Virus record (IMG/VR): IMGVR_UViG_3300037344_000003
Location: 1 to 31,828 of that record
Length of the DNA: 31,828 nucleotides
Direction: 5' to 3' (one strand)
Source: a virus
Position numbers and translations under genes: made by a program. The stretch's first letter is position 1. Every line of letters starts with the position of its first letter. Below the pieces are notes generated by a model. The model was not told the origin of the DNA and searched no databases. It was given only the letters and a program-made list of their open reading frames with translations. This document shows positions 2,454-26,602 of the stretch, in pieces.

Positions 2454-4721
2454 TCATTTTGACACCCTTCCTTCCTTCGCTGCGATCCAAATCAGCCCCT
2501 CATTCTGCACCATGTAGCCCATCGCGAACAGCGCCTCGATGGCCTGCGTATATGCCGAGCGAGCGTTCACGGATGTCATCTTGCCCTCGGCAAAGTCGCG
2601 CAGCTGGTCGGCAGGGATGCACCAAAATTGCCCGCTCTCAGGCCAGCCCGCGCCAGTTGGGTTGCTGTGTCCTCGGCCCTCGCTGCGCAGTTGCTTGAAC
2701 GCTTTGACAACGACTTTCTGGTTTGCACCCGTCGGGCGCTTTTGCGCGGTGTCGGCAGCGTCTTCATCGCTGGCCTTTGTTATCGTGCAGGTCGTCACGT
2801 CGTCGCCGTCTTCGTCCTGTCCCAGCGTGTGAACCTTGAGCGAGAACATGAACGGCGGCTGCGGCTCCAGATCGCGCTGCTTGGTGGCTGTGGCCGTGCG
2901 TATGGTGCCGTCAACTGCCAACTCGATCTCGGTGTCTGTCGCTGCCCTTAGACTGCTGTGGCCCCGTGCGCCCTTCGACGTGTCCTTGCCGCTGTGATGC
3001 ACTGTCATAATGTGTGCGCCAGTTGCCAGCCGCAGAACATCGACGTTCTGAATGTAGCTGCTCATGTCAACGCTGCCGTTCTCGTCGCCACCAGCCAGCG
3101 CGCGTGACAGTGTGTCTACCACGATCAGACACGGCTTTTGCCCGCAGGTCCGCTCGATGTCCGCGCACAGTTCCAGCAAGCCCTCGAGGTCCGCCGCTGG
3201 GTCCAGCAGGTTCACTGGCGACGGCCTGACGGCAAGCTGCACGTCGTCGATGCCGTACTGCTTGCGCAACGCCATTACGCGGTTGTTAAACGCATTGCCG
3301 CCTTCGGTTGCCAGATACAACACTGGCCCGCCGCGCGTCTTGCATCCCTGCCAATCCATTTTGGCCGCGACGCAGAACGCCATGTCGAGCGCGTAAAACG
3401 ATTTGCCGACGTTGCTCGGCCCATAGACGACCGACATTTGCCCAGCGCCCAACCAGTTTTTGACAAGGTACGCGGATTTCAGCATCGGCTTGGCGTCTTT
3501 GGCCCAGAAAATTTCATTCCGCTTTGCGCGTGATGTTGCCTCGCCTATCTGGAACACGGCGGGCGCTTCCACCTCGGCGGCCATTGTCATCGGTATGATG
3601 TCGAAGTCATCCAGATCATCGGCGGCAGGTTGATCGTGCTGGCTTGAGCCTTGCATGATGTTATCGCGGATGTCGTTGCGGCTCGGCTTAATCTCGGCCC
3701 CATATGCCCGCACTGCGTTGGTGATGTCGCCACCGTGTTCATAGAAGGCAAACAGGTCGAACGCGTCACCCCAGCAAAATTCCGCCGAGGCTGTGCCAAC
3801 GCCCGCAGCCAAGTCGCTGCCGGACATGCTGACCCAATGCGTTCCAAAGTCTTTCACGGGGTAACTGCCCGTTGTCGATTGCGGCGACTTGTAGCTGTCA
3901 GACTGCCCCTGCCGCTCATATCCGTACTGAATGAACAGGTCGGCGATTGTGTGCGTATCGTTAAACGCTTCAATGGGGTCAACATTATCTGGGAATTGCA
4001 GGCGCTTTTCTGCGCGGGCTGCAATGCGGCGGGCGCGATCCGCTGCGGCCTTTGCTTCGGCGATTTCTGCATTCTTTCGGCGGAATTCAACCTCGGCCCA
4101 GATTGTGCTGTCTTTTGCGACAAGGTAGCCCTCGCCGCGATTTTTGTCTGCGCTATAGAACAGCGGCGCGCCATTGTCGTCGCGCTTGGCTGGCGGCACG
4201 TTTGGTAGGTATATCGGCTGGCCAGAGCGAGCTAATGCCCCATCGGCGGCTATATTGTAGTCTCTGCCTAACATATCGAACAAAGCCAGCTGCGCATCCG
4301 CATATTCGCAACCTGTCAGCGGCTCTGCCAGCGGTATCAGCACCCGCCATTTTTTGTTATCTTCCGTTGCGCCCGCAGACGAATACGTCAGCGACGCTGC
4401 ATTGCATATTATATCGTCAACGGCGGATTGTAATGTATCAGCGTCAACATTGCCCTCGTCGATGTCGATTGCCAGCATGCAGTATGAACCGTTTTCACGC
4501 TGCGCTGCGTGGCTCCGGCCATCGTGCGCGCGGTAAGTTGAGGGAATGAAAAACGCGGCGTCGGCTTTTTCTGTGGACTGCGGTTCGTCAACCATTGCAG
4601 CGATTTCTCGCAGCGTGATGCCTTTGTATTCGGCTGTGTCATCGTGGATGCGGGTGTCTTTTGATCCGTGCGCTAATAGCATCTGCTGCTTGCTCACGCT
4701 GCTAATCTTTGATAACGTCAT
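2454..4721 (-). CDS. primase-helicase fusion protein (755 aa)
   Basis: Predicted replication protein joining a primase-like N-terminus to a RecA/RepA-type helicase ATPase. Residues 83-131 hold a DID acidic motif (86-88) and a WRVLIPL strand, as in archaeo-eukaryotic primase-polymerase folds. Residues about 260-345 resemble the region around a primase zinc domain (KSPQSTTGSYPVKDF, then GDAFDLFAFYEHGGD). The ATPase has Walker A GPSNVGKS (434-441), Walker B LIVVDTLS (532-539) and HHSGKD (575-580). The ATG at 4721 is preferred to upstream starts because AAAGG stands eight bases before it and the conserved part begins soon after; upstream codons run through the hairpin at 4766. It should prime and unwind phage DNA. 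The SSB-like gene lies upstream. Confidence 0.88.
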   Translation of the reverse strand: MTLSKISSVSKQQMLLAHGSKDTRIHDDTAEYKGITLREIAAMVDEPQSTEKADAAFFIPSTYRAHDGRSHAAQRENGSYCMLAIDIDEGNVDADTLQSAVDDIICNAASLTYSSAGATEDNKKWRVLIPLAEPLTGCEYADAQLALFDMLGRDYNIAADGALARSGQPIYLPNVPPAKRDDNGAPLFYSADKNRGEGYLVAKDSTIWAEVEFRRKNAEIAEAKAAADRARRIAARAEKRLQFPDNVDPIEAFNDTHTIADLFIQYGYERQGQSDSYKSPQSTTGSYPVKDFGTHWVSMSGSDLAAGVGTASAEFCWGDAFDLFAFYEHGGDITNAVRAYGAEIKPSRNDIRDNIMQGSSQHDQPAADDLDDFDIIPMTMAAEVEAPAVFQIGEATSRAKRNEIFWAKDAKPMLKSAYLVKNWLGAGQMSVVYGPSNVGKSFYALDMAFCVAAKMDWQGCKTRGGPVLYLATEGGNAFNNRVMALRKQYGIDDVQLAVRPSPVNLLDPAADLEGLLELCADIERTCGQKPCLIVVDTLSRALAGGDENGSVDMSSYIQNVDVLRLATGAHIMTVHHSGKDTSKGARGHSSLRAATDTEIELAVDGTIRTATATKQRDLEPQPPFMFSLKVHTLGQDEDGDDVTTCTITKASDEDAADTAQKRPTGANQKVVVKAFKQLRSEGRGHSNPTGAGWPESGQFWCIPADQLRDFAEGKMTSVNARSAYTQAIEALFAMGYMVQNEGLIWIAAKEGRVSK

Positions 4722-4803: not shown

Positions 4804-5463
4804 CTAAATAAGCATGATCGGCGCAAATGGAATTTCATCATCCATCGGCGCTGGCCGCACCGCCTGCGGTAGAGATGCAAACGGGTCTGCCTCGCCAAAT
4901 TCGCCAAGATCGGGATCGGCAACTCTGCCAACTGGCGCAATGGTGTCAAAATCATCAAGCCCGCTGCCGCCTGTGACCGCCTCGATAACCTGCACAACAT
5001 CCAGCAACAGCGAGATGCCGCCTGCCCCGTTCGGATCAGTCACGGGAACCGCCGATACCCTGATCGTCCCTTTTGTCCCAGTCCACAGGCTGCCAACATC
5101 ATCAAACGGCATCTTGTCCCCATCGACTACCCTTGGCAGCGGGTTTTCCTCGCCCTTGCCGTTGACGCCGTTCCGCTTCGCTGAAAAGCTAAACGATCCG
5201 TCGTCAAGTTTCTTCATGCCAAAAACCTTTTCGAACGGCTCTTTGCGCCCGCAGCTTTCGTAGTGCGCTTTTAACTCTGCGTGCAGCTTGCCCGCGTCTG
5301 CCGCATCCATGCCCCAGCTGATGCTGTAGTTTGCGCCCTGTGCGCGCGGTGCGCACGCAATACTGCGTTTGTCGGCGGTGCTGAAGCGATATGTCTCAGC
5401 CAGTCGCGGAAATGCGAACGTCACGTTTCGCACCATGATTGTTTTGAAATCCGTATTTGCCAT
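4804..5463 (-). CDS. single-stranded DNA-binding protein, DDEIPF tail
   Basis: A 219-residue protein that fits a phage SSB of the T7 gp2.5 or DUF2815-like type. Residues about 10-165 look like an OB-fold with a charged middle (AKRNGVNGKGEENPLP). The rest is an acidic linker leading to DDEIPF at 208-213, close to the DDDIPF tail that bacterial SSB proteins use to recruit partners. Here six more residues (APIMLI) follow the tail, which is unusual. The ribosome binding site AAGGAG is strong. It lies 12 bases after the RecE-like exonuclease, the place often held by a single-strand annealing protein, so an annealing role is possible. Confidence 0.78.
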   Translation of the reverse strand: MANTDFKTIMVRNVTFAFPRLAETYRFSTADKRSIACAPRAQGANYSISWGMDAADAGKLHAELKAHYESCGRKEPFEKVFGMKKLDDGSFSFSAKRNGVNGKGEENPLPRVVDGDKMPFDDVGSLWTGTKGTIRVSAVPVTDPNGAGGISLLLDVVQVIEAVTGGSGLDDFDTIAPVGRVADPDLGEFGEADPFASLPQAVRPAPMDDEIPFAPIMLI

Positions 5464-5475
5464 TGTTGTCTCTCC

Positions 5476-6279
5476 TTAAAAGTCGTCAATTGAGGCTGCA
5501 TCTTGTGCCAGCCACGGTGGAATATCAACCGCGTTGATACCTGTTGAATAGCCAGTGTCCCAAACTTGGGTTTCATTGGCCGTCTTAATATCGCGCAGGG
5601 CCTTGTGCATTTGCGCATCTGCCCACTCGATATATTCTTTAGTCAGCTCACAGCAATTCACTGCAAACGGGGCTGTCTTTTCCACGAACGCGAATACGAA
5701 CCGCGTCGCCTTGTAGCCCGCATTCTGCATGACGTACATATAAAACGCAGCCTGAAGCGCGTAGTTATACTTGCGGATGTCAGCTTCCACGTCTCGCGGC
5801 GCACTCGACTGACACGTTTTGATGTCGTATATCACGCCAAGGTTTTCGTCGTAACTGTCTGGCCGACACTTGATTCCCATGCCCGTCATCGGACACTCAG
5901 CAAAAAATGACGCCTCGTTTATCGTGTCGGGTCCGGCCATTTTGCGCCCGACTGGATGAAATATCACGCTGTCGGCCACGTCGCGGGCGAGGTCATAGTC
6001 GCCAGCGGTCAGCAGTAGGTGGCCGTGCGCTTCGGCTTCTGCGAACGCTTCCGACCATTGCTTGCCGCGACGGTCAGCCCCGCCGCGCACGGTGCTTTCG
6101 CCGTTTTCAAGGCACATGTCATGGACAGCGGTTCCGATTGCCATCGCGGTTGTTGGCTTGAACGCGGCCCGATGCTTCCAGTGGGCAAGCGACTTGCTGT
6201 GAACAGCTTTCACATCCGACGATGATATATCCTCGGTCGCGTGATATTGCGCGTTCGACATTTTGTCTGCGGTTATCAT
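5476..6279 (-). CDS. RecE-like PD-(D/E)XK exonuclease (copy 1)
   Basis: A 267-residue nuclease resembling the catalytic domain of RecE (exonuclease VIII). Visible active-site residues are H53, E122, D141, D152 and K154 in YDIKT, with Q176 and Y180 further on. The 11-residue gap between the two Asp and the D-x-K step match RecE. It should degrade one strand of double-stranded DNA ends to feed strand annealing. The start overlaps the RuvC stop (ATGA), and the SSB-like gene follows. A second homologue with the same residues is encoded at 11743-12534 on the other strand; both begin with a TxxMSNxxYH segment. A later start at residue 7 is possible, but 6279 has an AAGGA site and the overlap. Confidence 0.9.
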   Translation of the reverse strand: MITADKMSNAQYHATEDISSSDVKAVHSKSLAHWKHRAAFKPTTAMAIGTAVHDMCLENGESTVRGGADRRGKQWSEAFAEAEAHGHLLLTAGDYDLARDVADSVIFHPVGRKMAGPDTINEASFFAECPMTGMGIKCRPDSYDENLGVIYDIKTCQSSAPRDVEADIRKYNYALQAAFYMYVMQNAGYKATRFVFAFVEKTAPFAVNCCELTKEYIEWADAQMHKALRDIKTANETQVWDTGYSTGINAVDIPPWLAQDAASIDDF

Positions 6280-6746
6280 ATCAGTTTTTCCTTTCCATAT
6301 AAGGCGATCAGGCAGGCTTCCGCTCTGCCATCATCTTTGACCCGCGCAAACTGCGGCGCGATCTGCGGGAACCGTTGCGATGCAACAGACCGTGATACAC
6401 CCTTGTCGCGGGATAGGCCAAAGTGGCCCTTCCAGCGCTGTGGCGTGACGTAGTGAACAGGCAAGCCCTGCGCTGCGATGGCCATCGCTATCGAACCTTT
6501 CTGTTCTCCAAATCGGAACGTAGATGACACGCCTTGACCCCTCATTGCATTGACCAACTCGATCACAGCAATGTGGGGCGTGTCGTCCTCGCGCTCCAGT
6601 ATGTCGAGAACGCCGTGCAGGTTCAGGATTGTTTTGCCTTTAGCTGACTTCATCACTGGCATATCGTGAACCTCGATCAAGCCCAGCGCGGGCCTGTAGA
6701 TTGAGATTGCGCCCGTGAAGCCAATGTCGATGCCGAATATGACCAT
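6276..6746 (-). CDS. ruvC: RuvC-like Holliday junction resolvase
   Basis: A 156-residue RNase-H-fold nuclease with the RuvC pattern: D7 in FGIDIGFTG, E63 in AVIELV, and D138/D139 before GRAEACLIALY. Length is close to bacterial RuvC (about 170). It should cut four-way junctions and branched replication intermediates before packaging. Start and stop overlap the genes on either side (TGATG with the RHH gene, ATGA with the exonuclease). The plus arm carries an unrelated resolvase fold at the same place in its cassette. Confidence 0.88.
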   Translation of the reverse strand: MVIFGIDIGFTGAISIYRPALGLIEVHDMPVMKSAKGKTILNLHGVLDILEREDDTPHIAVIELVNAMRGQGVSSTFRFGEQKGSIAMAIAAQGLPVHYVTPQRWKGHFGLSRDKGVSRSVASQRFPQIAPQFARVKDDGRAEACLIALYGKEKLI

Positions 6747-6874
6747 CAGGACTGCTCCGCCTCTTTGATTGCAGCCATGCGGACAAACGCGGTAAACGTC
6801 ATTCCCAGACTATTCGCTGCGGCCTTGATGACCGCCGCATGTTCCTCGGAAAAATGGATCAACTTGGGTTTCAT
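6746..6874 (-). CDS. ribbon-helix-helix protein (42 aa)
   Basis: A 42-residue protein with the Arc/CopG-like layout: a short strand (KLIHFS), a helix (EEHAAVIKAAANSL), a turn (GMT) and a second helix (FTAFVRMAAIKEAEQ). The strong AAGGAG ribosome binding site fixes the start at 6874. Longer in-frame extension to 7213 would run through the divergent control region and is rejected. It is the first gene of the minus arm and lies next to a 13-bp palindrome, so it is the obvious candidate for an autoregulator of both arms. Its stop shares one base with the RuvC start, exactly as the plus-arm RHH gene does with its resolvase. Confidence 0.78.
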   Translation of the reverse strand: MKPKLIHFSEEHAAVIKAAANSLGMTFTAFVRMAAIKEAEQS

Positions 6875-7012
6875 GGTCGTTCTCCTTTTGTGTATGGCAT
6901 CAATAGCGTATAAAAATAATATAGTAAAGATGCAAAATATATCTTTACTATATCGCAGACTGCCGTTAGAAAGGTCATACGAACAATTTAACAAGCAAAT
7001 AGGAAATACAAA
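6875..7012. promoter_or_regulatory. divergent control region between the two arms
   Basis: This AT-rich gap separates the first genes of the minus and plus arms and must hold both early promoters. On the minus strand TTGCAT, a 17-base spacer and TATACG make a weak promoter candidate whose spacer contains one arm of the palindrome at 6919-6953. No convincing plus-strand -35/-10 pair was found. Confidence 0.6.
6919..6953. promoter_or_regulatory. 13-bp perfect palindrome, probable operator
   Basis: ATATAGTAAAGAT (6919-6931) and ATCTTTACTATAT (6941-6953) are exact reverse complements with a nine-base spacer. Position in the divergent gap and the adjacent RHH gene point to an operator. The right arm alone recurs at 7566-7578. 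Confidence 0.7.
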
Positions 7013-7017
7013 ATGAC
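6931..7017 (+). repeat. 87-bp perfect direct repeat, copy 1 (leader of 7013 gene)
   Basis: This segment is identical to 7556-7642. It runs from the right operator half through the 5' leader and ends two bases past the ATG of the 163-aa gene. Confidence 0.95.
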
Positions 7018-7504
7018 CAACGCAAAAAACATCGACGCAGCATTTGCCGAACTTAATGGGAAGTTGATCGCAAGCGACCAAGCCTTTGCAGCGGCCAAGA
7101 TCGACGGCTTCTATCCAGCAATGGACGCGGCCAAGCAGGCGTTTGCAGATGGCGACAATCGCTTCACATGCGGCTACGGACGTTTTTGCTATCACAGCGC
7201 AATGTGGGCGCACTACGGTAGCAAGGCCATGTGTGGCCTACTGCACGAACGTGGACGGGTTGGCGGCTTGGAAGCGATGATGAAAAACACATTGGCAAAT
7301 ATCGCCAAGCGCGACTCGCAGATTGAAAAATCACTGGCTAAGAAAGGCATTACAGAAATTCCAGAATTTACCTTGAAGCACGCATCAGACGGCTACGAGG
7401 GTTCGTTCTTGGTTGGTGATGACGTTGTAAACATCCACACAATTTTGGCTGGCGGATACAACATCCAGCGGCTGCACCAGCGCACCCTAGTAAAGGTGCG
7501 CTAA
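7013..7504 (+). CDS. hypothetical early protein (163 aa)
   Basis: First gene of the plus arm. The 163-residue protein is soluble and mixed-charge. Its C-terminal third (DDVVNIHTILAGGYNIQRLH, then QRTLVKVR) is compact and looks like a conserved phage domain, but no function is known to me. A middle segment has two close Cys and His residues (TCGYGRFCYHSAMW). AGGAAA lies a short way before the ATG within the repeated leader. Position directly behind the divergent promoter suggests early expression, perhaps against the host. The stop is followed by a C(UUCG)G hairpin. Confidence 0.8.
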   Translation: MTNAKNIDAAFAELNGKLIASDQAFAAAKIDGFYPAMDAAKQAFADGDNRFTCGYGRFCYHSAMWAHYGSKAMCGLLHERGRVGGLEAMMKNTLANIAKRDSQIEKSLAKKGITEIPEFTLKHASDGYEGSFLVGDDVVNIHTILAGGYNIQRLHQRTLVKVR

Positions 7505-7511
7505 CCCGAAC

Positions 7512-7527
7512 GGGGGCTTCGGCCCCC
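7512..7527 (+). terminator. C(UUCG)G hairpin in intergenic cassette 1
   Basis: GGGGGC-UUCG-GCCCCC is a six-pair stem with the extra-stable UUCG loop, eight bases after a stop codon. It is followed by CACCCAACCTAATCAAAGG and not by a U-tract, so it may protect the 3' end or tune read-through. Confidence 0.65.
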
Positions 7528-7555
7528 ACCCAACCTAATCAAAGGAAATACAAGC

Positions 7556-7642
7556 TGCAAAATATATCTTTACTATATCGCAGACTGCCGTTAGAAAGGT
7601 CATACGAACAATTTAACAAGCAAATAGGAAATACAAAATGAC
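7556..7642 (+). repeat. 87-bp perfect direct repeat, copy 2 (leader of 7638 gene)
   Basis: Identical to 6931-7017. It supplies the 58-aa gene with the same 5' leader, ribosome binding site and first codons, but only one half of the operator palindrome. Confidence 0.95.
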
Positions 7643-7814
7643 ATACAACGAAGCAATCAACGAACGCAACTTCCAAGGCGCAGGATTTATCGCGGTAAAA
7701 ACAACAGATTGGAACGAAGTAGAAAAGTTCATGGTTGTGAGCGGTGATACGGAACTTGCAAATTACCTCCGCCTTATGAAGGACTGGGACGTTAAAATCG
7801 AAGTCATAAACTAA
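7638..7814 (+). CDS. small hypothetical protein (58 aa)
   Basis: A 58-residue gene (MTYNEAINERNFQGAGFIAV... ending DWDVKIEVIN) expressed from a leader that is an exact copy of the one before the 163-aa gene. The shared bases include the ATG and part of codon 2. The protein is small, soluble and acidic, with a likely beta-alpha-beta pattern. No family is recognised. A C(UUCG)G hairpin follows the stop. Confidence 0.72.
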   Translation: MTYNEAINERNFQGAGFIAVKTTDWNEVEKFMVVSGDTELANYLRLMKDWDVKIEVIN

Positions 7815-7821
7815 AAAAAAC

Positions 7822-7837
7822 GGGGGCTTCGGCCCCC
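7822..7837 (+). terminator. C(UUCG)G hairpin in intergenic cassette 2
   Basis: GGGGGC-UUCG-GCCCCC again, eight bases after the stop, followed by CACCCAGCCCAATCAAAAGG and the next ribosome binding site. No U-tract follows. Confidence 0.65.
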
Positions 7838-7865
7838 ACCCAGCCCAATCAAAAGGAAATACAAA

Positions 7866-8111
7866 ATGAAAATGAACGCCGCATATATGAACGAGTGGGA
7901 CATCCAACAACTTGCCGAGGAAGCGTTAAAATCCTTTGAGATGACAGCATCTTGGCGACACGCAGGGGTTGCGGCTGCTGAGTTTGCGGCTGACGAATGG
8001 GGGGTTATGGCGAGTAAAGCGCAGGTGGCAACCGCCGTGGCCGTCGCCAAAACTGGCTGGCAAGGAATAAAGCAATCCGTTCAGAAAGTTCAATACTGCG
8101 TCCAAGCATAA
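7866..8111 (+). CDS. hypothetical protein (81 aa)
   Basis: An 81-residue alanine-rich, mostly helical protein starting MKMNAAYMNEWDIQQLAEEA. AAAGGAAA lies at good spacing within the repeated intergenic cassette. A second ATG two codons in could also serve. No family is recognised, and no membrane segment is convincing. It belongs to the series of small early genes of the plus arm. Confidence 0.7.
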   Translation: MKMNAAYMNEWDIQQLAEEALKSFEMTASWRHAGVAAAEFAADEWGVMASKAQVATAVAVAKTGWQGIKQSVQKVQYCVQA

Positions 8112-8118
8112 CCCAAAC

Positions 8119-8135
8119 GGGGGCCACGCGCCCCC
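8119..8135 (+). terminator. hairpin in intergenic cassette 3, loop changed
   Basis: GGGGGC-CACGC-GCCCCC keeps the stem of the two earlier copies while the loop differs, which supports selection on the hairpin. It is followed by CACCCAACCTAATCAAAAGG. Confidence 0.65.
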
Positions 8136-8164
8136 ACCCAACCTAATCAAAAGGACACATTCAA

Positions 8165-8254
8165 ATGAAACACCTCATTGGCGACATCATCGGCGCAGTT
8201 TCAATCTTTGCGACGCTCTACATTCTGCTTCTCGCGGCGGGGGCATCATTATGA
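8165..8254 (+). CDS. 29-aa single-pass membrane peptide
   Basis: A tiny gene encoding 29 residues, nearly all one hydrophobic helix (GAVSIFATLYILLLAAGASL) after a short MKHLIGDII start. AAAGGA stands before the ATG, and the stop overlaps the next start by four bases (ATGA), which strongly suggests real coupled translation. It would sit in the inner membrane. Function is unknown; small early membrane peptides of phages often affect host membranes or superinfection, but nothing here proves that. Confidence 0.6.
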   Translation: MKHLIGDIIGAVSIFATLYILLLAAGASL

Positions 8255-8568
8255 AAACCAATTTCAACGCCCCGCAGCCCGCAACGGTAAAGCAGTTTCA
8301 CTGCCGCGCCGTGCAGGCTGGCACAGGCAACAGCCTGTATTACGAGGCCGACACGATGGCCGAGTTGCATGTCATGCTCTACGGGTCCGCATATCCAGCC
8401 GAGCGCGCCAGCGTGCAGACATACGACAACACTGACCGGATCAGGAAAAACGAGATCATCAAGGACATCGCACGATATGGGCCAGTGCTTTGCGGGGCTA
8501 TCAACGAAATTCCACTCGACAAAATCTACGCAATCAAATCCAAATCAGAAAGAGACCAAAATGTTTGA
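8251..8568 (+). CDS. hypothetical protein (105 aa)
   Basis: A 105-residue soluble protein translated in coupling with the membrane peptide before it (ATGA). The N-terminal half looks like a small beta-rich domain (VKQFHCRAVQAGTGNSLYYE), followed by charged helices ending KSKSERDQNV. No family is recognised. The next gene starts eight bases inside its 3' end. Confidence 0.72.
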   Translation: MKTNFNAPQPATVKQFHCRAVQAGTGNSLYYEADTMAELHVMLYGSAYPAERASVQTYDNTDRIRKNEIIKDIARYGPVLCGAINEIPLDKIYAIKSKSERDQNV

Positions 8569-9145
8569 TAATAACCAGCCAACAACCGAAACCGCGATTA
8601 CAATAACAACGCGCACACTCAGCGAAAGTTGCTTTGCTCTAGAGCATGGCACTGGCGAAAGTGTATTTGTCCCTGCGTCGGTATCAATTCGCGCAAACCT
8701 AAAAGTCGGCGACGTGTTGGTGGCGAACGTGATCCCAAACCCCGTCGAAAACAGCCGCGACCGCACGCCATTCATGGCCGTCCACGTCGCGCCATACGCA
8801 ATCACTGCCCACACATCAAAGCCGCCAACGATCACAGCCGAAAGCGCTGCCGAGGTTTCTGCGGATGACGCCCGCCAATTTACAAACAACCTGCTTATGG
8901 CTGGCGGATGCTGGAATAATCTGGACGTATTTTGTTCGCTTATGAATGACGAGAATGCGCGGCGAGACGACAACGCTGTGGCGTATGCCGCGATCGGCAA
9001 CGAGCTGCGCCGCATGTTTAGCTCTGACGTTGCTTCAAAGTTTACACTGTACCGCACTGGATCACAGACGCGCGCCAGCGCTGAGTGGTTTACCACGACG
9101 CCAGACCAGTGCGAGCCAATGGATTGGAGTGAAGAAGATGCTTAA
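8561..9145 (+). CDS. hypothetical protein with OB/cold-shock-like N-terminus (194 aa)
   Basis: A 194-residue protein starting MFDNNQPTTETAITITTRTL at 8561; longer in-frame extension would overlap the previous gene. Residues about 20-75 (GESVFVPASV, LKVGDVLVANVIPN, RTPFMAVHV) have the strand order of a cold-shock or S1-like OB fold, so nucleic-acid binding is possible. The C-terminal half is helical and ends acidic (DWSEEDA). It sits upstream of a winged-helix-like gene in the accessory arm. Family assignment is uncertain. Confidence 0.7.
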   Translation: MFDNNQPTTETAITITTRTLSESCFALEHGTGESVFVPASVSIRANLKVGDVLVANVIPNPVENSRDRTPFMAVHVAPYAITAHTSKPPTITAESAAEVSADDARQFTNNLLMAGGCWNNLDVFCSLMNDENARRDDNAVAYAAIGNELRRMFSSDVASKFTLYRTGSQTRASAEWFTTTPDQCEPMDWSEEDA

Positions 9146-9431
9146 TAATCACAAGGCAAAAGGTCCAGCCCCGAAAACGCGCCCGCACACGACACTGCGC
9201 AAACTGCAACAGCAGAACCGCGAGTTTCTGACCATCGGTTCGCTTGGAACGGACGTGGCTTGCAAATTGCCCACCGCAGTGGCGGAATGGCTGATTGCTG
9301 AAACGCTCAAGCTGCCAGCGGTGGGCGGCGCGCGCTTGCCATCCGTTGCGAGTTTGATTGCGCTGCTGTGCATCGACGCTTACCACGACGATCTGGAGGA
9401 ACGCATGGCATCGAAAGGAAAGCGCAGATGA
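9138..9431 (+). CDS. hypothetical protein (97 aa), 3' end duplicated downstream
   Basis: A 97-residue basic protein starting MLNNHKAKGPAPKTRPHTTL, overlapping the previous gene by eight bases. The basic N-terminus and a later helix pair (LPSVASLIALLCIDAYHDD) could bind nucleic acid, but no family is recognised. Its last 33 codons are duplicated at 13148-13248 without a start codon. Its stop overlaps the winged-helix-like gene (ATGA). Confidence 0.72.
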   Translation: MLNNHKAKGPAPKTRPHTTLRKLQQQNREFLTIGSLGTDVACKLPTAVAEWLIAETLKLPAVGGARLPSVASLIALLCIDAYHDDLEERMASKGKRR

Positions 9432-9820
9432 GTGCTAAATTGGATATAATCACGGCCAACGCATTCAAGTTGACGTCGATGGCAACGGCAAACGAGGCAC
9501 ACATCGGGCGCGTAATCCGCCGCCATGAATTGGCAGACGAACACCGCCCCCGCATGCCAAAAACGCCAGACAGGACGGAGGTTGAGCGTCAGGGCTTGCA
9601 GCGGGTCGCAGATGTCGAGGTGATAAAGTTTCTGCGCGCATGCCCGAAGGGCATATCCACTATGCGTGTAATCCAAGACGGGCTGGTTGGCACGGTTCGG
9701 CCGGCCAGCGTTCAAAACGCCCTGCGCAATCAAATGTCGGTTGGCGTTATCCGCAAGCACAGCTCTAGCACGGGCAACCGAAACTGGTACGAGCTGACGG
9801 ACAAGGGGCGCCGATCGTGA
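9331..9820 (+). repeat. diverged direct repeat A, copy 1
   Basis: About 490 bp matching 13148-13640 at an offset of 3817 bases. It holds the last third of the 97-aa gene and all of the winged-helix-like gene. The copies are clearly homologous but diverged, so the duplication is not recent. Confidence 0.9.
9428..9820 (+). CDS. winged-helix-like DNA-binding protein (copy 1)
   Basis: A 130-residue protein. The C-terminal half (VIKFLRACPKGISTMRVIQD, then SVQNALRN and NRNWYELTDKGRRS) reads as a winged helix of the MarR/ArsR-like kind: helix, recognition helix, and a beta wing ending in the familiar YELTDKGR. The N-terminal half is helical and basic (HIGRVIRRHELADEH). The paralogue at 13245-13640 is about three-quarters identical by eye and keeps the wing exactly. 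It is probably a regulator of the accessory arm. The Mom-like gene follows with a GTGA overlap. Confidence 0.72.
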   Translation: MSAKLDIITANAFKLTSMATANEAHIGRVIRRHELADEHRPRMPKTPDRTEVERQGLQRVADVEVIKFLRACPKGISTMRVIQDGLVGTVRPASVQNALRNQMSVGVIRKHSSSTGNRNWYELTDKGRRS

Positions 9821-10422
9821 GCAAGGATCAGTTTACAATTTCAGCCATAAGTAAGGCCGAGGCAGCATTGCTTTTGAACAAATTTCACTATCTGACGGGG
9901 ATTTCAAAGGGGTTTAAATCTGGAATAAACTTTGGCCTATTTATTGGGGGCGAGGTCGTCGGCGCTTGCATATTCACGGGGTTCCCTGTGCCAGAGTTGG
10001 CGGCGGGGGCGTTCGGGCTGCCGAGGTCGGAGCAGCGTGGCTTATTCGAATTATCACGCCTAGTCCTACGGCCAGACATACAGGCGACGGAGCATAATGT
10101 GGCAAGCTGGTTTGTCAGCCGCTGCCTGAAAATGCTAAAGGCGGACCACTCACCGCGAGCTGTCTTATCGTATGCAGACGATGAGCATCACCACGGCACT
10201 GTGTACGCAGCGTGCAATTTCACATATTTCGGTATGGCCGCCGAGAAGAAAGATTTTTGGTTCAAACAGCCAAATGGTGACTTTATTAAGCACTCGCGGG
10301 GGAGGATAGCGGGGAGGGAAGGCGAGTGGCGACCGCGCAGCAGAAAGCACAGATTTATGGTTGTGTTTGATAAGGCGCTGGACGTCAAGTGGCCAAGCGA
10401 GAGGTGGAGGCCGAGAGCTTAA
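9817..10422 (+). CDS. mom: Mom-like DNA modification protein (GNAT fold)
   Basis: A 201-residue protein that resembles phage Mu Mom, which makes an acetamido-type modification on adenine and hides DNA from restriction enzymes. Supporting segments are NKFHYLTG (21-28), a glycine-rich strand (GLFIGGEVVGACIF), ELSRLVL (78-84), an acyl-CoA-binding-like helix (HNVASWFVSRCLKML), LSYADDEHHHG (117-127) and VYAACNFTYFG (129-139). A basic tail follows. The start is GTG, coupled to the winged-helix-like stop with no ribosome binding site of its own, so expression is likely low and dependent on the gene before it. Another GNAT activity cannot be ruled out. Confidence 0.78.
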   Translation: MSKDQFTISAISKAEAALLLNKFHYLTGISKGFKSGINFGLFIGGEVVGACIFTGFPVPELAAGAFGLPRSEQRGLFELSRLVLRPDIQATEHNVASWFVSRCLKMLKADHSPRAVLSYADDEHHHGTVYAACNFTYFGMAAEKKDFWFKQPNGDFIKHSRGRIAGREGEWRPRSRKHRFMVVFDKALDVKWPSERWRPRA

Positions 10423-10479
10423 TGATGACGCGAAAGAAGCCGAGGCATATGCTGCTGAAATGGAAGGAGGTGTCAACTG

Positions 10480-10629
10480 ATGGCTGACAGATCACACATG
10501 AGCAAAAGCTGCACTTGCTCGCGCAAAGACGCACCTGACGGACACCGCTGGCACGATCCAGAATGTCCGGTTCACAACAATAATGAAGGAGATCGTGTGG
10601 GGCGGGCGGGCTTAGAAATCGGACTGTAG
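10480..10629 (+). CDS. small Cys/His protein (49 aa), possible zinc binder
   Basis: A 49-residue gene with a strong GGAGG site. Its first 32 residues hold CTC, HRWH and ECPVH, enough ligands for a zinc knuckle. It follows the Mom-like gene. In Mu a zinc protein (Com) controls mom translation, but this protein shows no similarity to Com that I can see, so that role is only a thought. The last 12 codons fall inside the 87-nt repeated element at 10597, so the protein end and an RNA structure share bases. Confidence 0.6.
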   Translation: MADRSHMSKSCTCSRKDAPDGHRWHDPECPVHNNNEGDRVGRAGLEIGL

Positions 10630-10683
10630 CGCAGTAACCAGCAAGCGCACCAACAACAACCTAAGTTGAAATATTCGCCCCAC
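10597..10683 (+). ncRNA. candidate structured RNA B, copy 1 (tRNA 5'-half-like)
   Basis: An 87-nt element closed by GTGGGGCG at its start and CGCCCCAC at its end, an exact eight-pair stem. Nucleotides 24-52 read like the 5' half of a bacterial tRNA: CGGACTG, TA, then GCGC, a 12-nt loop and GCGC, the layout of acceptor strand, U8-A9 and D-arm. The loop lacks the usual GG. A CAAC/GTTG hairpin follows, but no anticodon arm or T-arm is present. Copy 2 at 14033 has the same length and differs at four positions, two of them in the last hairpin loop. Confidence 0.45.
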
Positions 10684-10806
10684 TGGCAATCAATATCACC
10701 GGCGGCGTGGAGGGAAAGCCAAAAGTTGAAAGATCACACAAAGATTGCGCAGCACTTGCGCTAAGATAGCACAGGTGCCACACTGGCAAAACATATTGGA
10801 GACAGA
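10684..10806 (+). other. non-coding leader before the plus-arm RHH gene
   Basis: No gene is seen here. It contains GCGCA-GCACT-TGCGC (a five-pair inverted repeat near 10745-10760) that could be an operator or small hairpin. No clear promoter is visible. It probably holds control sites for the second recombination cassette. Confidence 0.4.
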
Positions 10807-10968
10807 ATGATGGAAAATAACACGAAACAATTGGGCGCACGTATCCGCACCGAGGTGCTGGACTCACTGAGGGCGCTGTCTAAAAAGAAGCGCATCAGCA
10901 TGGCCGTGCTGACCGAGCAGGCGATTATCGGGCTACTCGAGGACAACGGCGTCGAGGTCAGCATCTAA
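10807..10968 (+). CDS. ribbon-helix-helix regulator (53 aa)
   Basis: A 53-residue Arc/CopG-like protein: strand (LGARIRTEV), helix (LDSLRALSKKK), turn (RISMA), helix (VLTEQAIIGLLEDNG). GGAG stands five bases before the first of two ATG codons. It opens the second recombination cassette, and its stop shares one base with the resolvase start (TAATG), the same arrangement as the 42-aa RHH gene and RuvC in the minus arm. It probably represses its own operon. Confidence 0.8.
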   Translation: MMENNTKQLGARIRTEVLDSLRALSKKKRISMAVLTEQAIIGLLEDNGVEVSI

Positions 10969-11357
10969 TGGCTACCAATGGTCGCAACAAAGGTGCATCG
11001 TTTGAGCGTGACATCGCCAAGATGCTGCACGACGAACTGGGCATCTCGTTTAAGCGCGATTTGGAGCAATATCGCGAGGGCGGCCACGGCGACTTGATTC
11101 CGTCCGATCCTGCTTTTCCGTTTACATTGGAGTTAAAGCGGTACGCTGACGGGCCGATAGGCGGCCAGAAGGCTTGGTGGCAGCAAACGTGCGTCGCAGC
11201 AAGGCGCGAAGGCAAATACCCTGCGCTGATCTACCGATACGACCGCAAGCCGATCCGTTGCGTCGTTCCAATGGACCCAAACCACTGGCAAGAGGACGGA
11301 CATGTGATTGAAATGGATTTCGAGGCGTTCTGCTATTTAGTAAGGGAGACAATGTGA
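10968..11357 (+). CDS. PD-(D/E)XK Holliday-junction-resolvase-like nuclease
   Basis: A 129-residue nuclease with the RecU/Hjc-type layout: KGASFERDIAKML with the first Glu near residue 13, then GGHGDLIPSD with the key Asp, then FTLELKRY with the E-x-K pair. A short helix and strand follow (KAWWQQTCVAARREGK, then PALIYRYD). Length suits phage resolvases. It takes the place that RuvC has in the minus-arm cassette. The reaction would be cleavage of branched DNA. Assignment to a particular resolvase family is uncertain. Confidence 0.78.
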   Translation: MATNGRNKGASFERDIAKMLHDELGISFKRDLEQYREGGHGDLIPSDPAFPFTLELKRYADGPIGGQKAWWQQTCVAARREGKYPALIYRYDRKPIRCVVPMDPNHWQEDGHVIEMDFEAFCYLVRETM

Positions 11358-11743
11358 TGAAAGACTATAGGGCAAGCCAACGCAGTGTTGAGGTTGGATA
11401 TAAGACAAGATGGGACGAAATTGCAGACCTAGCAAAGAAGCTGGCAAAAACAGAAGACCTGTCGATTTGGACCGGCGGAGAGAAATTTGACAGCGTTGAA
11501 GAGTATGACGCATATGCGTACTATTTGGGCATTATGGACGCCATGCGCGACATGTCGGTTTGGGTTAAGTTGGATGGCGGCAAGATCACGCCAAATGTGT
11601 TTTTCTCAATGCCAGACTTCTGCATCAATGCCAACCCAGAGTGCGTACACTGGGAAGGCCCATTTGGGGATCATTTGAAGCCAGTCAATGTTGACGAGGA
11701 CGAGGGCGAGGACACATTTACGATCACGCTGGAGTATGAATAA
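11357..11743 (+). CDS. hypothetical acidic protein (128 aa)
   Basis: A 128-residue acidic protein between the resolvase and exonuclease genes, overlapping or touching both (TGATG at its start, TAATG at its end). The ATG at 11357 is chosen over a GTG one codon earlier. Helical N-terminus (TRWDEIADLAKKLAKTEDL), central aromatic region (AYAYYLGIMDAMRDMSVW) and a very acidic end (VDEDEGEDTFTITLEYE). No family is recognised. The acidic, DNA-like surface could suit a partner or inhibitor of a DNA-binding protein. Confidence 0.72.
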   Translation: MKDYRASQRSVEVGYKTRWDEIADLAKKLAKTEDLSIWTGGEKFDSVEEYDAYAYYLGIMDAMRDMSVWVKLDGGKITPNVFFSMPDFCINANPECVHWEGPFGDHLKPVNVDEDEGEDTFTITLEYE

Positions 11744-12534
11744 TGTCTATTAACTACACGATGAGCAACGAGGAATACCACTTGTCGGACTCCCTGTCCG
11801 CGTCCGGTGCCAAGACAATTGCGCAGAAGTCGCTGGCCGATTTCAAGTATGGCGAGCGCAAGCACAGCAACGCATTTGACGTCGGCACTGCAGCCCACAC
11901 GCTCACATTTGAACCGCACCTGTCTGGTTCGGTGTGGTGCGGCGCAGAACACCGGCGCGGCAAGGCGTGGACCGACCACAAGGCCGAAGCCGAAGAGGCT
12001 GGCGCGTTGCTACTCACTGAGGGCGACTACAAAATCGCCGTGGCGATGGCCAACGCGGTGCGATCCAACAAGGCCGCAGCGTCGCTGCTGTCGGGTGACT
12101 TGGTTTGCGAGGCGTCAATATTTGCCCGCGACGACATCCACGACGTTGACCTGCGGTGCCGGCCCGACGGCTGGCGCAGAGACATCGGCGCGCTGATAGA
12201 TTTGAAGACAACAATCGCGCCCGATCCGGCGGGATTTAGCAAGCAGTGCGCGCAGTTTGGCTACCATATTCAGGACGCATTCTATCGCCGCGTCATGGCG
12301 TTGGAGGGTTTAGAGATTGACCGCTTCATATTCATCACGGTAGGCAAGGAGGCACCGCACCACGTCGGTTGCTACGAATTAGACTGGTCATCGCTCGCAG
12401 AGGGCGACGCCGCAACAGAATACGCGCTGGGCAAATACGCCGAAGCGCGTAAAACGGGCGTCTGGGATTACGGCTTTGGCGAATTGCAGACGATCCAAAT
12501 ACCAAGCTGGTCATTCCAGCATTCGCAGCCGTAA
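11743..12534 (+). CDS. RecE-like PD-(D/E)XK exonuclease (copy 2)
   Basis: A 263-residue homologue of the exonuclease at 5476-6279. H52, E123, D142, D153 and K155 (LIDLKTT), Q177 and Y181 line up one for one with the other copy, so both look active. The two share the MSNxxYH start, the R-R-G-K segment near residue 72 and the VWDYG/VWDTG end. Divergence is high, so this is an old paralogue or an independent acquisition. It should resect double-stranded ends. The SSB-like gene starts 38 bases downstream with an AAGGAG site. Confidence 0.9.
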   Translation: MSINYTMSNEEYHLSDSLSASGAKTIAQKSLADFKYGERKHSNAFDVGTAAHTLTFEPHLSGSVWCGAEHRRGKAWTDHKAEAEEAGALLLTEGDYKIAVAMANAVRSNKAAASLLSGDLVCEASIFARDDIHDVDLRCRPDGWRRDIGALIDLKTTIAPDPAGFSKQCAQFGYHIQDAFYRRVMALEGLEIDRFIFITVGKEAPHHVGCYELDWSSLAEGDAATEYALGKYAEARKTGVWDYGFGELQTIQIPSWSFQHSQP

Positions 12535-12572
12535 CTGGCTAACATTAGGCACACAACGTCAAGGAGACACAC

Positions 12573-13139
12573 ATGCCAATTTCATTCGGTGAGACATCAG
12601 ACAGCTCGGGCGCATACGTTCGGGTCAACCTCCCACAAAACCGCTGGACCCTAAACGCCGGCGCAGACCCGCAGACTATCGACATGGTCAAGGGCATCGC
12701 CATCGACATCAAGAACGTAAAATTCGGGTGGCTCAAAATCGCCGTGGGAATGCGCGACTGGCAGGAGTGGCCCGCGCCGTCACAGCCAACGGCAAAGCCG
12801 CAGGAACTCGACGCCGAAGGAAAACTTGCATATAAGCAGGGTTTCGACGTGGATTGCTGGATGGCTGACGGCACGCCAGCACAATTCAGCAACAACAGCT
12901 ACGGCACCGGCCAGTTTATCGCAAAGCTGTATAACAATGCAGAAAATGCGCCGGAGTTTAATCAGGGTCTGATTCCAGTGGTCAGCGTAACGTCATCGAC
13001 GCCGGTGGTGGTCGGAAAAGGGACTTCATACGATCTGGGCTTCACAATCGTAAAGTGGATCAAGGCCCCAGTCGAGGGTGACGCGCCAGCAGCTCCAGCT
13101 CCGGCAGCCGCACAGTCAGACGACGCGTTCGGCTTCTAA
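12573..13139 (+). CDS. SSB-like or annealing protein with acidic-aromatic tail
   Basis: A 188-residue protein. The N-terminal 150 residues are beta-rich (YVRVNLPQNRWTLNAG, FGWLKIAVGMRDWQEW, TSYDLGFTIVKWIK) and fit an OB-like ssDNA-binding fold. An Ala/Pro linker then leads to SDDAFGF, a tail of the SSB type for partner binding. It is not visibly related to the other SSB-like protein at 4804-5463. Position directly behind a RecE-like exonuclease is where phages usually encode the annealing protein (RecT, Beta or Erf), and none of those is recognised here. So it may be an SSB or a new type of annealing protein. Confidence 0.65.
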   Translation: MPISFGETSDSSGAYVRVNLPQNRWTLNAGADPQTIDMVKGIAIDIKNVKFGWLKIAVGMRDWQEWPAPSQPTAKPQELDAEGKLAYKQGFDVDCWMADGTPAQFSNNSYGTGQFIAKLYNNAENAPEFNQGLIPVVSVTSSTPVVVGKGTSYDLGFTIVKWIKAPVEGDAPAAPAPAAAQSDDAFGF

Positions 13140-13147
13140 GCACACGC

Positions 13148-13248
13148 CGCGCTTGCCATCCGTTGCAAGTTTGATCGCGCTGCTGTGCATCGACGCTTAC
13201 CACGACGATCTGGAAGAGCGCATGGCATCGAAAGGGAAACGCAGATGA
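13148..13248 (+). pseudogene. start-less 3' remnant of the 97-aa gene
   Basis: The last 32 or so codons of the gene at 9138-9431 are present, in frame and ending at the same TGA, but the 5' two-thirds and start codon are missing. The differences from the full copy in these codons that I can see are all synonymous. The stop still overlaps the start of the winged-helix-like gene that follows. Confidence 0.75.
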
Positions 13249-13640
13249 GTTCTAAATTGGACGTAATCACAGACAACGCATTCAAGTTGGCGTCGATGGC
13301 CACTGCAAACGAGGGTCACATTGCGAGGGTCATCCGCCGCCACGAACTTGCAGACGGCCACCGCAGGCTGTTGCCTTCATCGCCTGACCGATCCGAACTT
13401 GAGCGACAATCGGTCCAGCGCGTCGCCGAAGCCGCCGTGCTAAAATTCCTGCGGACGTGCAAAGACGGCATTTCAACGCAGCGCGCTATGCAGGACGCCT
13501 TGGTCGGCATCATCCGCCCAGCGTCGGTTCAGAACGCTTTGCGCAATCTAAACGGGGCCGCTGGCTTTATCCGCAAGCACGTTTCATCAACAGGCAATCG
13601 CAACTGGTATGAACTGACAGACAAGGGCCGCAGATCATGA
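13245..13640 (+). CDS. winged-helix-like DNA-binding protein (copy 2)
   Basis: A 131-residue paralogue of the protein at 9428-9820. The N-terminal helices and the C-terminal wing (NRNWYELTDKGRRS) are nearly identical; the middle has drifted (for example LPSSPDRSELERQ against MPKTPDRTEVERQ). It keeps a full reading frame, so both regulators are probably made. They may bind overlapping operators or form mixed dimers. It overlaps the zinc-finger gene that follows (ATGA). Confidence 0.72.
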   Translation: MSSKLDVITDNAFKLASMATANEGHIARVIRRHELADGHRRLLPSSPDRSELERQSVQRVAEAAVLKFLRTCKDGISTQRAMQDALVGIIRPASVQNALRNLNGAAGFIRKHVSSTGNRNWYELTDKGRRS

Positions 13641-13813
13641 GCAAGAAACGCAGTTTCCGTTGCCCCGAATGCTGGCGCTGCTATTCAAACGCGGCAGCCG
13701 TAGATCGGCACCGCACAAAAATGGATGGCCGCTGCATCGACAGCGCGCCCGTCTACGTTGTTGACAGGATTAAACACGAACGGGCAAAGATTGCCGCAGG
13801 AGATGACCAATGA
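13637..13813 (+). CDS. small zinc-finger protein (58 aa)
   Basis: A 58-residue protein with a C2HC-type finger: C9 and C12 (CPEC), a tyrosine and hydrophobic core (CYSNAAAVDRH), H25 and C33. A charged helix follows (RIKHERAKIAAGDDQ). It starts at the point in repeat A where the Mom-like gene starts in the other copy, and the two proteins share their first three residues (MSK). It may bind nucleic acid. Both ends overlap neighbours by four bases (ATGA), which supports translation. Confidence 0.7.
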   Translation: MSKKRSFRCPECWRCYSNAAAVDRHRTKMDGRCIDSAPVYVVDRIKHERAKIAAGDDQ

Positions 13814-14028
13814 CCACATTCTTCACAATATTATTGATCCATATCGGCGCTACAACGTACACGGTTACGCTGCCGTCGCAGGCGGAATGCTCGGATGCGC
13901 TGCTGATTGTCAGCGATGCGCGCCACGAACTGTCAGCAATGGGCGACGGGGGCGAGGTCTGGGCGCAATGCCACCGAACAAATCTTTTGTCAGCGTCCAT
14001 GCGGCCCCGTGCGCGAGGTGACTTGTGA
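13810..14028 (+). CDS. small hypothetical protein, possible signal peptide (72 aa)
   Basis: A 72-residue protein whose start (MTTFFTILLIHIGATTYTVT) resembles a short signal peptide or membrane anchor, with two cysteines later (AEC and AQC) and a basic end (SMRPRARGDL). GGAG lies before the ATG, which overlaps the zinc-finger stop. It may be exported to the periplasm. No family is recognised. Its stop overlaps the first bases of the second B repeat. Confidence 0.65.
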   Translation: MTTFFTILLIHIGATTYTVTLPSQAECSDALLIVSDARHELSAMGDGGEVWAQCHRTNLLSASMRPRARGDL

Positions 14029-14032
14029 TCGT

Positions 14033-14119
14033 GTGGGGCGGGCGGGCTTAGAAAACGGACTGTAGCGCAGTAACCAGCAAGCGCACCAACATCAACCAAG
14101 GTTGAAATATTCGCCCCAC
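14033..14119 (+). ncRNA. candidate structured RNA B, copy 2 (tRNA 5'-half-like)
   Basis: Same 87-nt length as the element at 10597-10683, with exact closing stem GTGGGGCG/CGCCCCAC and identical D-arm-like core. The homology extends about six bases further upstream. Differences at two positions fall in the loop of the CAAC/GTTG hairpin and leave the stem intact. No protein gene with a good ribosome binding site uses this copy, which favours a function as RNA or DNA site. Confidence 0.45.
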
Positions 14120-14161
14120 TTCGACCGTATAACAACAACGCAAAATGAGGAACAGCACAAA

Positions 14162-14437
14162 ATGGACAGATCAACAGTTTTAAAGCAAGCCGAGCAATGC
14201 GTCACCCATGATCGCGCCGCGACACATGGCGACGCAGAAGACAGCTTCGCCAGCATCGCAGCGCTGTGGGAATGGTGGATGATCCACCGCGACGACGGCC
14301 CGCTGGACGCATACGATGTGGCAATGATGATGTCGTTGTTCAAGCACGCCCGCGCAGCGTCAAACAAAGAACACAGCGACAACTTTGTGGATGCGTGTGG
14401 ATATCTGGCATTGGCATCAGAAATGACCTACAGCTAA
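14162..14437 (+). CDS. DUF6378-like phage protein (91 aa)
   Basis: A 91-residue helical protein with GAGGAAC before the ATG at 14162. The layout is that of a small domain common in phages (DUF6378-like): RAATHGDAEDSFASIAALW, then AYDVAMMMSLFKHARAAS, then DNFVDACGYLALA. The repeated His/Asp/Glu pairs resemble an all-alpha MazG-like nucleotide-hydrolase scaffold, but activity is unknown. It is the last gene of the plus arm and its end overlaps the end of the oppositely directed nuclease gene by 21 bases. Confidence 0.75.
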   Translation: MDRSTVLKQAEQCVTHDRAATHGDAEDSFASIAALWEWWMIHRDDGPLDAYDVAMMMSLFKHARAASNKEHSDNFVDACGYLALASEMTYS

Positions 14438-14791
14438 CTCTCGCAACGACGCAGATTGGGCGGCGGGCGTAAAGTCTGCCGTCCTGAGCGTCATGTGCTT
14501 GCAGTTTAGTCTGGCATCGTCGCCGCGCATAAATAAAACTAGACCGAGCGGCAGCGCGTAAAGGCCCCACCAGTCGGCTTTTGACGCGCCGACATTAAAC
14601 CGCACGCGGCACGTGTTCGAAATTGTGGCGCATGTTTTAACCTCGACCGACGCCAGCGTGCCGTCAGGCCGCAGCGCAATCACGTCAAACCGTCCGTCCG
14701 ATCTAGTGGCCTCGCAGTTTGCACGCTCTAACAAGTGGCAGACGAAAAACTCGCCAGCGCGACCTATGTTGATAGCGCGGCGGGCAATCAT
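14417..14791 (-). CDS. PD-(D/E)XK nuclease-like protein (124 aa)
   Basis: A 124-residue protein with a restriction-nuclease-like core: Glu in GRAGEFFVCHLLE, Asp in GRFDVIALRPDG, and E-x-K in ASVEVKT. This is the pattern of group I intron-type and Holliday junction nuclease-like PD-(D/E)XK domains. It is the last gene of the minus arm, directly behind the spanin genes (ATGA overlap), which is an odd place for a nuclease. Possible roles are host DNA breakdown or branch resolution before packaging. Its 3' end overlaps the last plus-arm gene. Confidence 0.75.
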   Translation of the reverse strand: MIARRAINIGRAGEFFVCHLLERANCEATRSDGRFDVIALRPDGTLASVEVKTCATISNTCRVRFNVGASKADWWGLYALPLGLVLFMRGDDARLNCKHMTLRTADFTPAAQSASLRELAVGHF

Positions 14792-14997
14792 TTACAGAAT
14801 TGATCCCAAGTTTCGTTATTGACGACAATGCCGACTAGCAGCCCGCGATCCTGCACCATTAACGTGTCGATGGTTTGCTGGCTTTCAAACTGCAATGGCC
14901 GAGCCAGATCGCAGTAATTACCGTTTGTCGGCGTTTGGGCGCAGCCACTTAGCAGCGCGCTCGCCAAGGCCAACGTCGCCAAGCGTTTCGACGTCAT
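14788..14997 (-). CDS. outer-membrane spanin subunit (Rz1-like lipoprotein)
   Basis: A 69-residue lipoprotein. The start MTSKRLATLALASALLSGC is a type II signal peptide with lipobox LLSGC, so the mature protein starts at C19 and would sit in the inner leaflet of the outer membrane. Most of the gene lies out of frame inside the i-spanin gene, the classic Rz/Rz1 nesting, though its end extends past it. Mature length of about 50 residues fits o-spanins. Together the two subunits join inner and outer membranes at the end of lysis. A start 30 bases upstream is less likely because it breaks the signal peptide. Confidence 0.85.
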   Translation of the reverse strand: MTSKRLATLALASALLSGCAQTPTNGNYCDLARPLQFESQQTIDTLMVQDRGLLVGIVVNNETWDQFCK

Positions 14998-15834: not shown

Positions 15835-15840
15835 CTTGGC

Positions 15841-21660: not shown

Positions 21661-21662
21661 TG

Positions 21663-24592: not shown

Positions 24593-24630
24593 GATGGCCT
24601 CCATTTGTTCTGCGCTTGCCGAAGGCGCGT

Positions 24631-26595: not shown

Positions 26596-26602
26596 GTTTA
26601 GC

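What the first reader, a model, noticed from the sequence alone, without database searches (positions are those of the whole stretch)
4804..13139. Two recombination cassettes of matching order in one small phage
Minus arm: RHH (6746-6874), RuvC resolvase (6276-6746), RecE-like exonuclease (5476-6279), SSB-like (4804-5463). Plus arm: RHH (10807-10968), PD-(D/E)XK resolvase (10968-11357), unknown acidic gene, RecE-like exonuclease (11743-12534), SSB-like (12573-13139). Both exonucleases keep every visible catalytic residue. In both cassettes the RHH stop shares one base with the resolvase start. The resolvases have different folds and the SSB-like proteins look unrelated, so the sets are not a simple recent copy. 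Phages normally carry one such set. Two, under separate RHH control and on opposite arms, suggest different timing, substrates or a competition and replacement event.
Basis: partly seen in the sequence, partly recalled or inferred. Interest (0 to 1): 0.85.

Follow-up and report, generated by a model that had tools for sequence, protein, structure and literature searches.

The report
Phage carrying two DNA-recombination gene sets
A small uncultured phage carries its own DNA-recombination gene set and also an intact second set that came recently from another phage lineage; the relatives checked carry only one, so it may catch a phage in the act of swapping or doubling this machinery.

Summary
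The window (one 31,828-bp IMG/VR record) has two intact cassettes ordered RHH, resolvase, RecE-like exonuclease, SSB-like. Both exonucleases are DUF3799/exonuclease VIII, keep every invariant residue, and are only 35% identical.

The minus cassette is native: it heads the primase/helicase operon, as in relative L021 (35.7 kb) and isolated roseophage CRP-811. The plus cassette is acquired: window 10754-13152 is 97% identical to L002, a contig with its own primase and terminase, while the flanks match cassette-free relatives (L110, L021) and L111. The left junction falls in a leader shared by both sides; the right junction shares 5 bp and ends inside a duplicated gene A.

All 35 IMG/VR records checked whole, and about 100 relatives' loci, hold one exonuclease; only the window has two. 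On the exonuclease tree the SSB partner changes once (91 rows; shuffles 21-37), resolvase type five times, so exonuclease and SSB are inherited as a pair. dN/dS of 0.03-0.18 for exonucleases, SSBs and resolvases argues that both sets have been functional.

Acquisition, and perhaps replacement, is supported. Different timing or substrates is untested. One assembly without reads is the main caveat.

The parts
2454..4721 (-). AAA primase/helicase, downstream end of the native operon
   Evidence: PF13481 1.5e-35, phrog_906; 78% identical in L021
4804..5463 (-). SSB_m, gp2.5/Enc34-type ssDNA-binding protein with DDEIPF acidic tail
   Evidence: phrog_112 1.1e-12; AF2 model matches T7 gp2.5, E 5.6e-9
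5476..6279 (-). EXO_m, RecE-like exonuclease
   Evidence: PF12684, phrog_412; 3h4r 2.7e-9
6276..6746 (-). RES_m, RuvC/MOC1-type Holliday junction resolvase
   Evidence: phrog_1770 3.7e-31; MOC1 structures 1.1e-11
6746..6874 (-). RHH_m, small ribbon-helix-helix protein
   Evidence: TacA1/NikA-like, just below cut-off; identical in L021
9428..9820 (+). gene A, copy 1 (weak PadR-like match), left flank
   Evidence: direct repeat D1/D5; PadR 0.0044
9817..10422 (+). Mom-like DNA modification gene, left flank
   Evidence: PF25680 2.9e-22; phrog_1384 2.4e-27
10591..10684 (+). D2 repeat, copy a, left flank
   Evidence: 96% identical to 14027-14120; also in L021 and L035
10688..10789 (+). leader shared with cassette-free L110; its last 36 nt are also shared with L002, so the left junction lies here
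   Evidence: alignment
10807..10968 (+). RHH_p, Arc-like ribbon-helix-helix protein
   Evidence: PF12651 5.3e-7; phrog_3180
10968..11357 (+). RES_p, PD-(D/E)XK nuclease, probable resolvase
   Evidence: PF24608 1.7e-19; phrog_244 1.2e-18
11354..11743 (+). unknown acidic gene, found otherwise only in L002 among the loci
   Evidence: no Pfam or PHROG match; 98% in L002
11743..12534 (+). EXO_p, RecE-like exonuclease
   Evidence: PF12684, phrog_412; 3h4r 9.3e-6
12573..13139 (+). SSB_p, SSB-like protein of an unnamed family
   Evidence: position and acidic tail; weak OB-fold match; no relative in 50,697 phage records
13148..13152 (+). right junction: CGCGC common to donor and recipient sides
   Evidence: alignment
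13245..13640 (+). gene A, copy 2, right flank; start is copy-1-like, rest as in L111
   Evidence: sliding identity; 99% protein identity to L111
14027..14120 (+). D2 repeat, copy b, right flank

Best explanation
The phage holds two complete end-resection and annealing modules. The minus set is its inherited early operon. The plus set was taken up recently from another phage lineage and joined into the accessory arm. Shown here: family membership of the exonucleases, foreign origin of the plus set, its two junctions, intact reading frames, and rarity of the double state. Inferred: each exonuclease resects 5' strands at double-strand ends, its own SSB-like partner coats or anneals the 3' tails, and the resolvase cuts joint molecules, giving RecA-independent repair, concatemer formation and mosaic exchange. 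Exonuclease and SSB travel as a matched pair; the resolvase is exchangeable. The present state is a partial diploid: a step towards replacing the native set, or an added module not yet lost.
For: Window 10754-13152 is 97% identical to L002, which otherwise shares only 46 nt and has its own primase and terminase. L021 and L110 have a single gene A and no cassette at the site. Both junctions are resolved to short stretches. All 35 whole records have one exonuclease, as do all loci except the window. SSB type changes once on the exonuclease tree, resolvase type five times. dN/dS 0.03-0.18 for exonucleases, SSBs and resolvases of both sets.
Against: One record and no reads. L002 begins at the left junction, so the donor's upstream sequence is unseen and the direction of transfer rests on the flanks. 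L111 begins inside gene A, so the lineage may have held the cassette for longer. dN/dS covers time before the two sets met. SSB_p function is inferred.
Confidence: 0.72

Rival explanations
1. Stable division of labour: the two sets act at different times or on different DNA ends, and selection keeps both.
For: Both sets are intact with low dN/dS; different RHH genes stand in front; the plus set is in an arm of opposite strand, without a primase.
Against: The plus set is 97% identical to a copy in another phage, leaving little time to specialise; no relative with both sets was found; no expression data.
Confidence: 0.12
2. Back-up against host defence: phage recombinases are targets of anti-phage systems, so a second, non-homologous pair lets the phage recombine when the first is blocked.
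For: Defence systems that target phage homologous recombinases are known (PMC11846896); the plus set sits next to a Mom-like anti-restriction gene in the accessory arm.
Against: No direct evidence here; no defence-related family among ten tested window proteins; the neighbour gene may be chance.
Confidence: 0.07
3. Mis-assembly: the plus cassette belongs to another phage of the same sample and was joined in error.
For: Single record; cassette nearly identical to L002; gene A and D2 occur twice in the window; the exact junction words were not found elsewhere.
Against: Both flanks belong to one accessory-arm lineage (L110 left; L111, L110 and L021 right), so two misjoins would be needed. The right join shares only 5 bp and the leader shared at the left is 33 of 36 nt, far less than usual assembly words.
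Confidence: 0.07

Closest known systems
Roseobacter phages CRP-811 and CRP-406 (CRP-822-type group, PMC12629253)
   Same: Same two-arm early region; operon of RHH-type gene, PDDEXK nuclease, RecE-like exonuclease, gp2.5-type SSB, helicase or primase; related tail protein
   Different: One cassette only; exonuclease 42% identical or less; capsid gene not matched
RecET (Rac prophage) and lambda Red
   Same: RecE-family exonuclease paired with a dedicated ssDNA partner
   Different: Partners here are a gp2.5-type SSB and an unnamed SSB-like protein; no RecT or Red-beta family match
gp2.5 modules of phages (duf2800-gp2.5-polA, PMC8093625)
   Same: PD-(D/E)XK exonuclease next to a gp2.5-type protein (minus set here)
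   Different: Exonuclease is DUF3799, not DUF2800; resolvase and primase instead of polA; plus set has a different SSB-like partner
Mosaic module exchange between phages (PMC3945230)
   Same: Acquired block with diverged homology at the borders
   Different: Here the new module sits beside the old one instead of replacing it

Membership tests
RecE-like exonuclease (DUF3799, exonuclease VIII), both copies | Match to the family profile above the curated cut-off | tested here: met
   PF12684 88.7 and 86.5 bits, cut-off 26
RecE-like exonuclease (DUF3799, exonuclease VIII), both copies | Conserved active-site residues H, E, D, D-x-K, Q-x-x-x-Y | tested here: met
   Invariant in 24 sequences including both window copies; columns align with RecE 3h4r
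RecE-like exonuclease (DUF3799, exonuclease VIII), both copies | 5'-3' dsDNA exonuclease activity | not testable with these tools
   needs biochemistry
gp2.5/Enc34-type SSB (SSB_m) | Family profile and fold | tested here: met
   phrog_112 1.1e-12; Foldseek to T7 gp2.5 5.6e-9 and Enc34 SSB about 1e-7
gp2.5/Enc34-type SSB (SSB_m) | Acidic C-terminal tail ending in an aromatic residue | tested here: met
   DDEIPF conserved in relatives; window copy carries six further residues APIMLI
gp2.5/Enc34-type SSB (SSB_p) | Family profile or fold | tested here: inconclusive
   No profile similarity to SSB_m, no Pfam match, Foldseek against PDB without a significant hit, weak OB-fold rows Z 4.8-5.6
RuvC/MOC1-type resolvase (RES_m) | Sequence relation to known Holliday junction resolvases | tested here: met
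   phrog_1770 3.7e-31; MOC1 1.1e-11; Pfam RuvC only 0.014, below cut-off
PD-(D/E)XK resolvase (RES_p) | PD-(D/E)XK family profile | tested here: met
   PF24608 70.8 bits, cut-off 27
PD-(D/E)XK resolvase (RES_p) | Holliday junction cleavage | not testable with these tools
   Resolvase role rests on the phrog_244 name and on position; no solved relative
CRP-822-type phage group | Conserved packaging and structural module | tested here: inconclusive
   Tail protein 57% identical to CRP-811; capsid protein found no match in CRP-811 or CRP-406, without a positive control

The most novel reading that the evidence does not exclude
The phage stably runs two orthogonal exonuclease and SSB pairs that cannot exchange partners, giving it separate recombination channels (by timing, DNA ends or defence escape). 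The strict exonuclease-SSB pairing across the family would be the rule that forces a phage to take up a whole pair at once.
Probability: 0.17. Interest if true: 0.7.

Novelty: new variant of a known kind. Interest (0 to 1): 0.47.

Why it matters
Phage recombination modules are known to be exchanged, but no other relative checked here holds two. Both joins are visible and both sets are intact, so one can ask whether two exonuclease-SSB pairs interfere, cooperate or compete. The family-wide pattern (exonuclease and SSB inherited together, resolvase exchanged freely) is a testable rule about which parts must match. SSB_p is an unnamed SSB-like family with no match in the isolate phage collection.

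Tried and rejected
Simple internal duplication of one cassette: rejected, exonucleases 35% identical and SSBs without profile similarity. Transposon or integrase-borne insert: no such family among the insert's genes and no inverted repeats at its borders. Target-site duplication by one event in one genome: unlikely, since the stretches between gene A and D2 differ (Mom-like gene and 10480-10629 in copy 1; 13637-14028 in copy 2, as in L021 and L111) and the A copies are 76% identical overall. Exact junction words in IMG/VR: none. Host genomes: a genome-contig scan with SSB_m gave one partial Methylotenera MAG hit, not used. Foldseek of SSB_p against PDB: nothing with E under 0.001; in the second look the phiC31 RDF (9teh), RB69 and T4 gp32 lead with Z 5.6-4.8, a range that can be chance; Foldseek against BFVD gave eight hits under 0.001, mostly unnamed phage proteins. 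D2 as structured RNA: folding z-score -1.6, no Rfam match in the window. Sigma-70 consensus scan: no more than chance. Literature: no report of two such sets in one phage, but the library is partial.

Full report
WHAT IS THERE. The window is one IMG/VR virus record of 31,828 bases. Head, tail and lysis genes lie on the minus strand, an accessory arm on the plus strand (about 7.0-14.4 kb), and the replication operon on the minus strand below 6.9 kb. The two exonucleases belong to one family (PF12684, phrog_412) and match the RecE nuclease structure. The family's invariant active-site columns are kept in both. The resolvases belong to different superfamilies: RuvC/MOC1-type on the minus arm, PD-(D/E)XK on the plus arm. 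SSB_m is a gp2.5/Enc34-type protein. SSB_p has no named family; its model (mean pLDDT 72.6) resembles OB-fold proteins weakly, and tblastn finds no relative in 50,697 phage records.

THE NATIVE SET. In L021 the genes RHH_m, RES_m, EXO_m, SSB_m and primase lie in the same order (100, 89, 90, 64 and 78% protein identity). CRP-811 and CRP-406 have the same kind of operon behind a divergent accessory arm. An RHH gene in front of the resolvase, with a one-base overlap, is part of this standard operon. The matching order in the two arms of the window is therefore inherited operon design.

THE ACQUIRED SET. Window 10754-13152 is 97% identical to L002, a contig with its own primase and terminase genes that shares only 46 nt more with the window. 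Other relatives of EXO_p (79-81% identical in the nearest) are the only exonuclease of their contigs. Relatives of the recipient lack the set: L021 and L110 run from gene A into the next genes without it. Identity with L002 ends at 13152, inside what in L002 reads as a hairpin after the SSB gene; the window goes on in gene A, with CGCGC common to both sides. The first 120 or so nt of gene A after the join resemble copy 1 (109 of 118 compared), after which the copy diverges from copy 1 and matches L111 (93-95% over 13324-15360). A second, homology-driven crossover probably followed the first join (inference). At the left, window 10688-10789 matches the leader before gene 14102 in L110, and 10754-10789 of it is shared with L002 (33 of 36 nt between L110 and L002), so the left exchange falls there. 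By eye this leader reads TTGCGC, 17 nt, CACACT, and a similar element precedes the RHH gene in L004; that it is a promoter is inference. Phage recombinases are known to drive exchange between diverged sequences (PMC3945230).

HOW UNUSUAL. 35 IMG/VR records with this exonuclease, searched whole, have exactly one (the second hit of G017 is a 34-residue fragment at its other end). Among the loci only the window has two. Among isolate phages, 552 records hold 553 places and 673 hold 674, so at most one record per search has two. No report of a double set appeared in the open papers searched.

PAIRING RULE. On a tree of 100 exonucleases the SSB type changes once over 91 labelled rows (100 shuffles: 21 to 37), the resolvase type five times over 70 rows (shuffles 11 to 16). 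Exonuclease and SSB move together while the resolvase is exchanged. The plus set arrived with its own partner, as this rule predicts. Labels come from the best SSB profile within 3 kb; some deep branches are long and unsurely placed.

FUNCTION. Both sets are intact. Pairwise dN/dS is 0.03-0.12 for the plus resolvase, SSB and exonuclease (against L002) and 0.07-0.18 for the minus ones (against L021); the unknown acidic gene gives 0.37 from five changes. This shows constraint over the time compared, not that both are needed now. The mechanism (resection, coating or annealing, resolution) follows from what is known of RecE, gp2.5 and Holliday junction resolvases. Timing and control were not tested.

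RELATIVES AND HOST. Tail, lysis and replication genes resemble roseophages of the CRP-822-type group, which suggests a marine alphaproteobacterial host (inference). The structural genes are not shared with L021, so the early region itself is exchanged between phages.

LIMITS. One assembly, no reads. L002 starts at the left junction and L111 starts inside gene A, so the donor's upstream sequence and the age of the double state are unknown. SSB_p's role rests on position, acidic tail and a weak fold match. Collections may leave out records very near the window.

Noticed in passing
window 9817-10422: Mom-like DNA modification gene (PF25680 2.9e-22, phrog_1384), an anti-restriction candidate in the left flank of the acquired set; IMG/VR relatives (57-62%) lie in unrelated contigs.
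   Followed up: partly
window 10591-10684 and 14027-14120; L021, L035, L111: 94-nt element (D2) with 94-98% identity between copies, starting with the 3' end of a small ORF and closed by GTGGGGCG/CGCCCCAC; purpose unknown.
   Followed up: partly
window 6927-7017 and 7552-7642: 91-nt leader repeated at 99% identity in front of plus-arm genes 7013 and 7638; also in L021.
   Followed up: no
window 7509-7548, 7819-7858, 8117-8156: Repeated hairpin GGGGGCTTCGGCCCCC-type spacer between plus-arm genes, also in L021; such spacers could let gene cassettes be shuffled.
   Followed up: no
window 4804-5463: SSB_m is 64% identical to L021 although its neighbours RES_m and EXO_m are 89-90%; the window copy also has a six-residue extension after the DDEIPF tail.
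   Followed up: partly
window 6276-6746: The minus resolvase's nearest solved relatives are chloroplast MOC1 resolvases (1.1e-11), ahead of any bacterial RuvC structure.
   Followed up: no
window 15195-31786 against L021: Early and accessory region is shared with L021 (to 15194) but the structural half is not, so the whole early region looks like an exchangeable block.
   Followed up: partly
L077-L103: A third exonuclease group (about 42% to EXO_p) uses gp2.5-type SSBs; in several of its loci a RuvC-type gene lies on the opposite strand.
   Followed up: no
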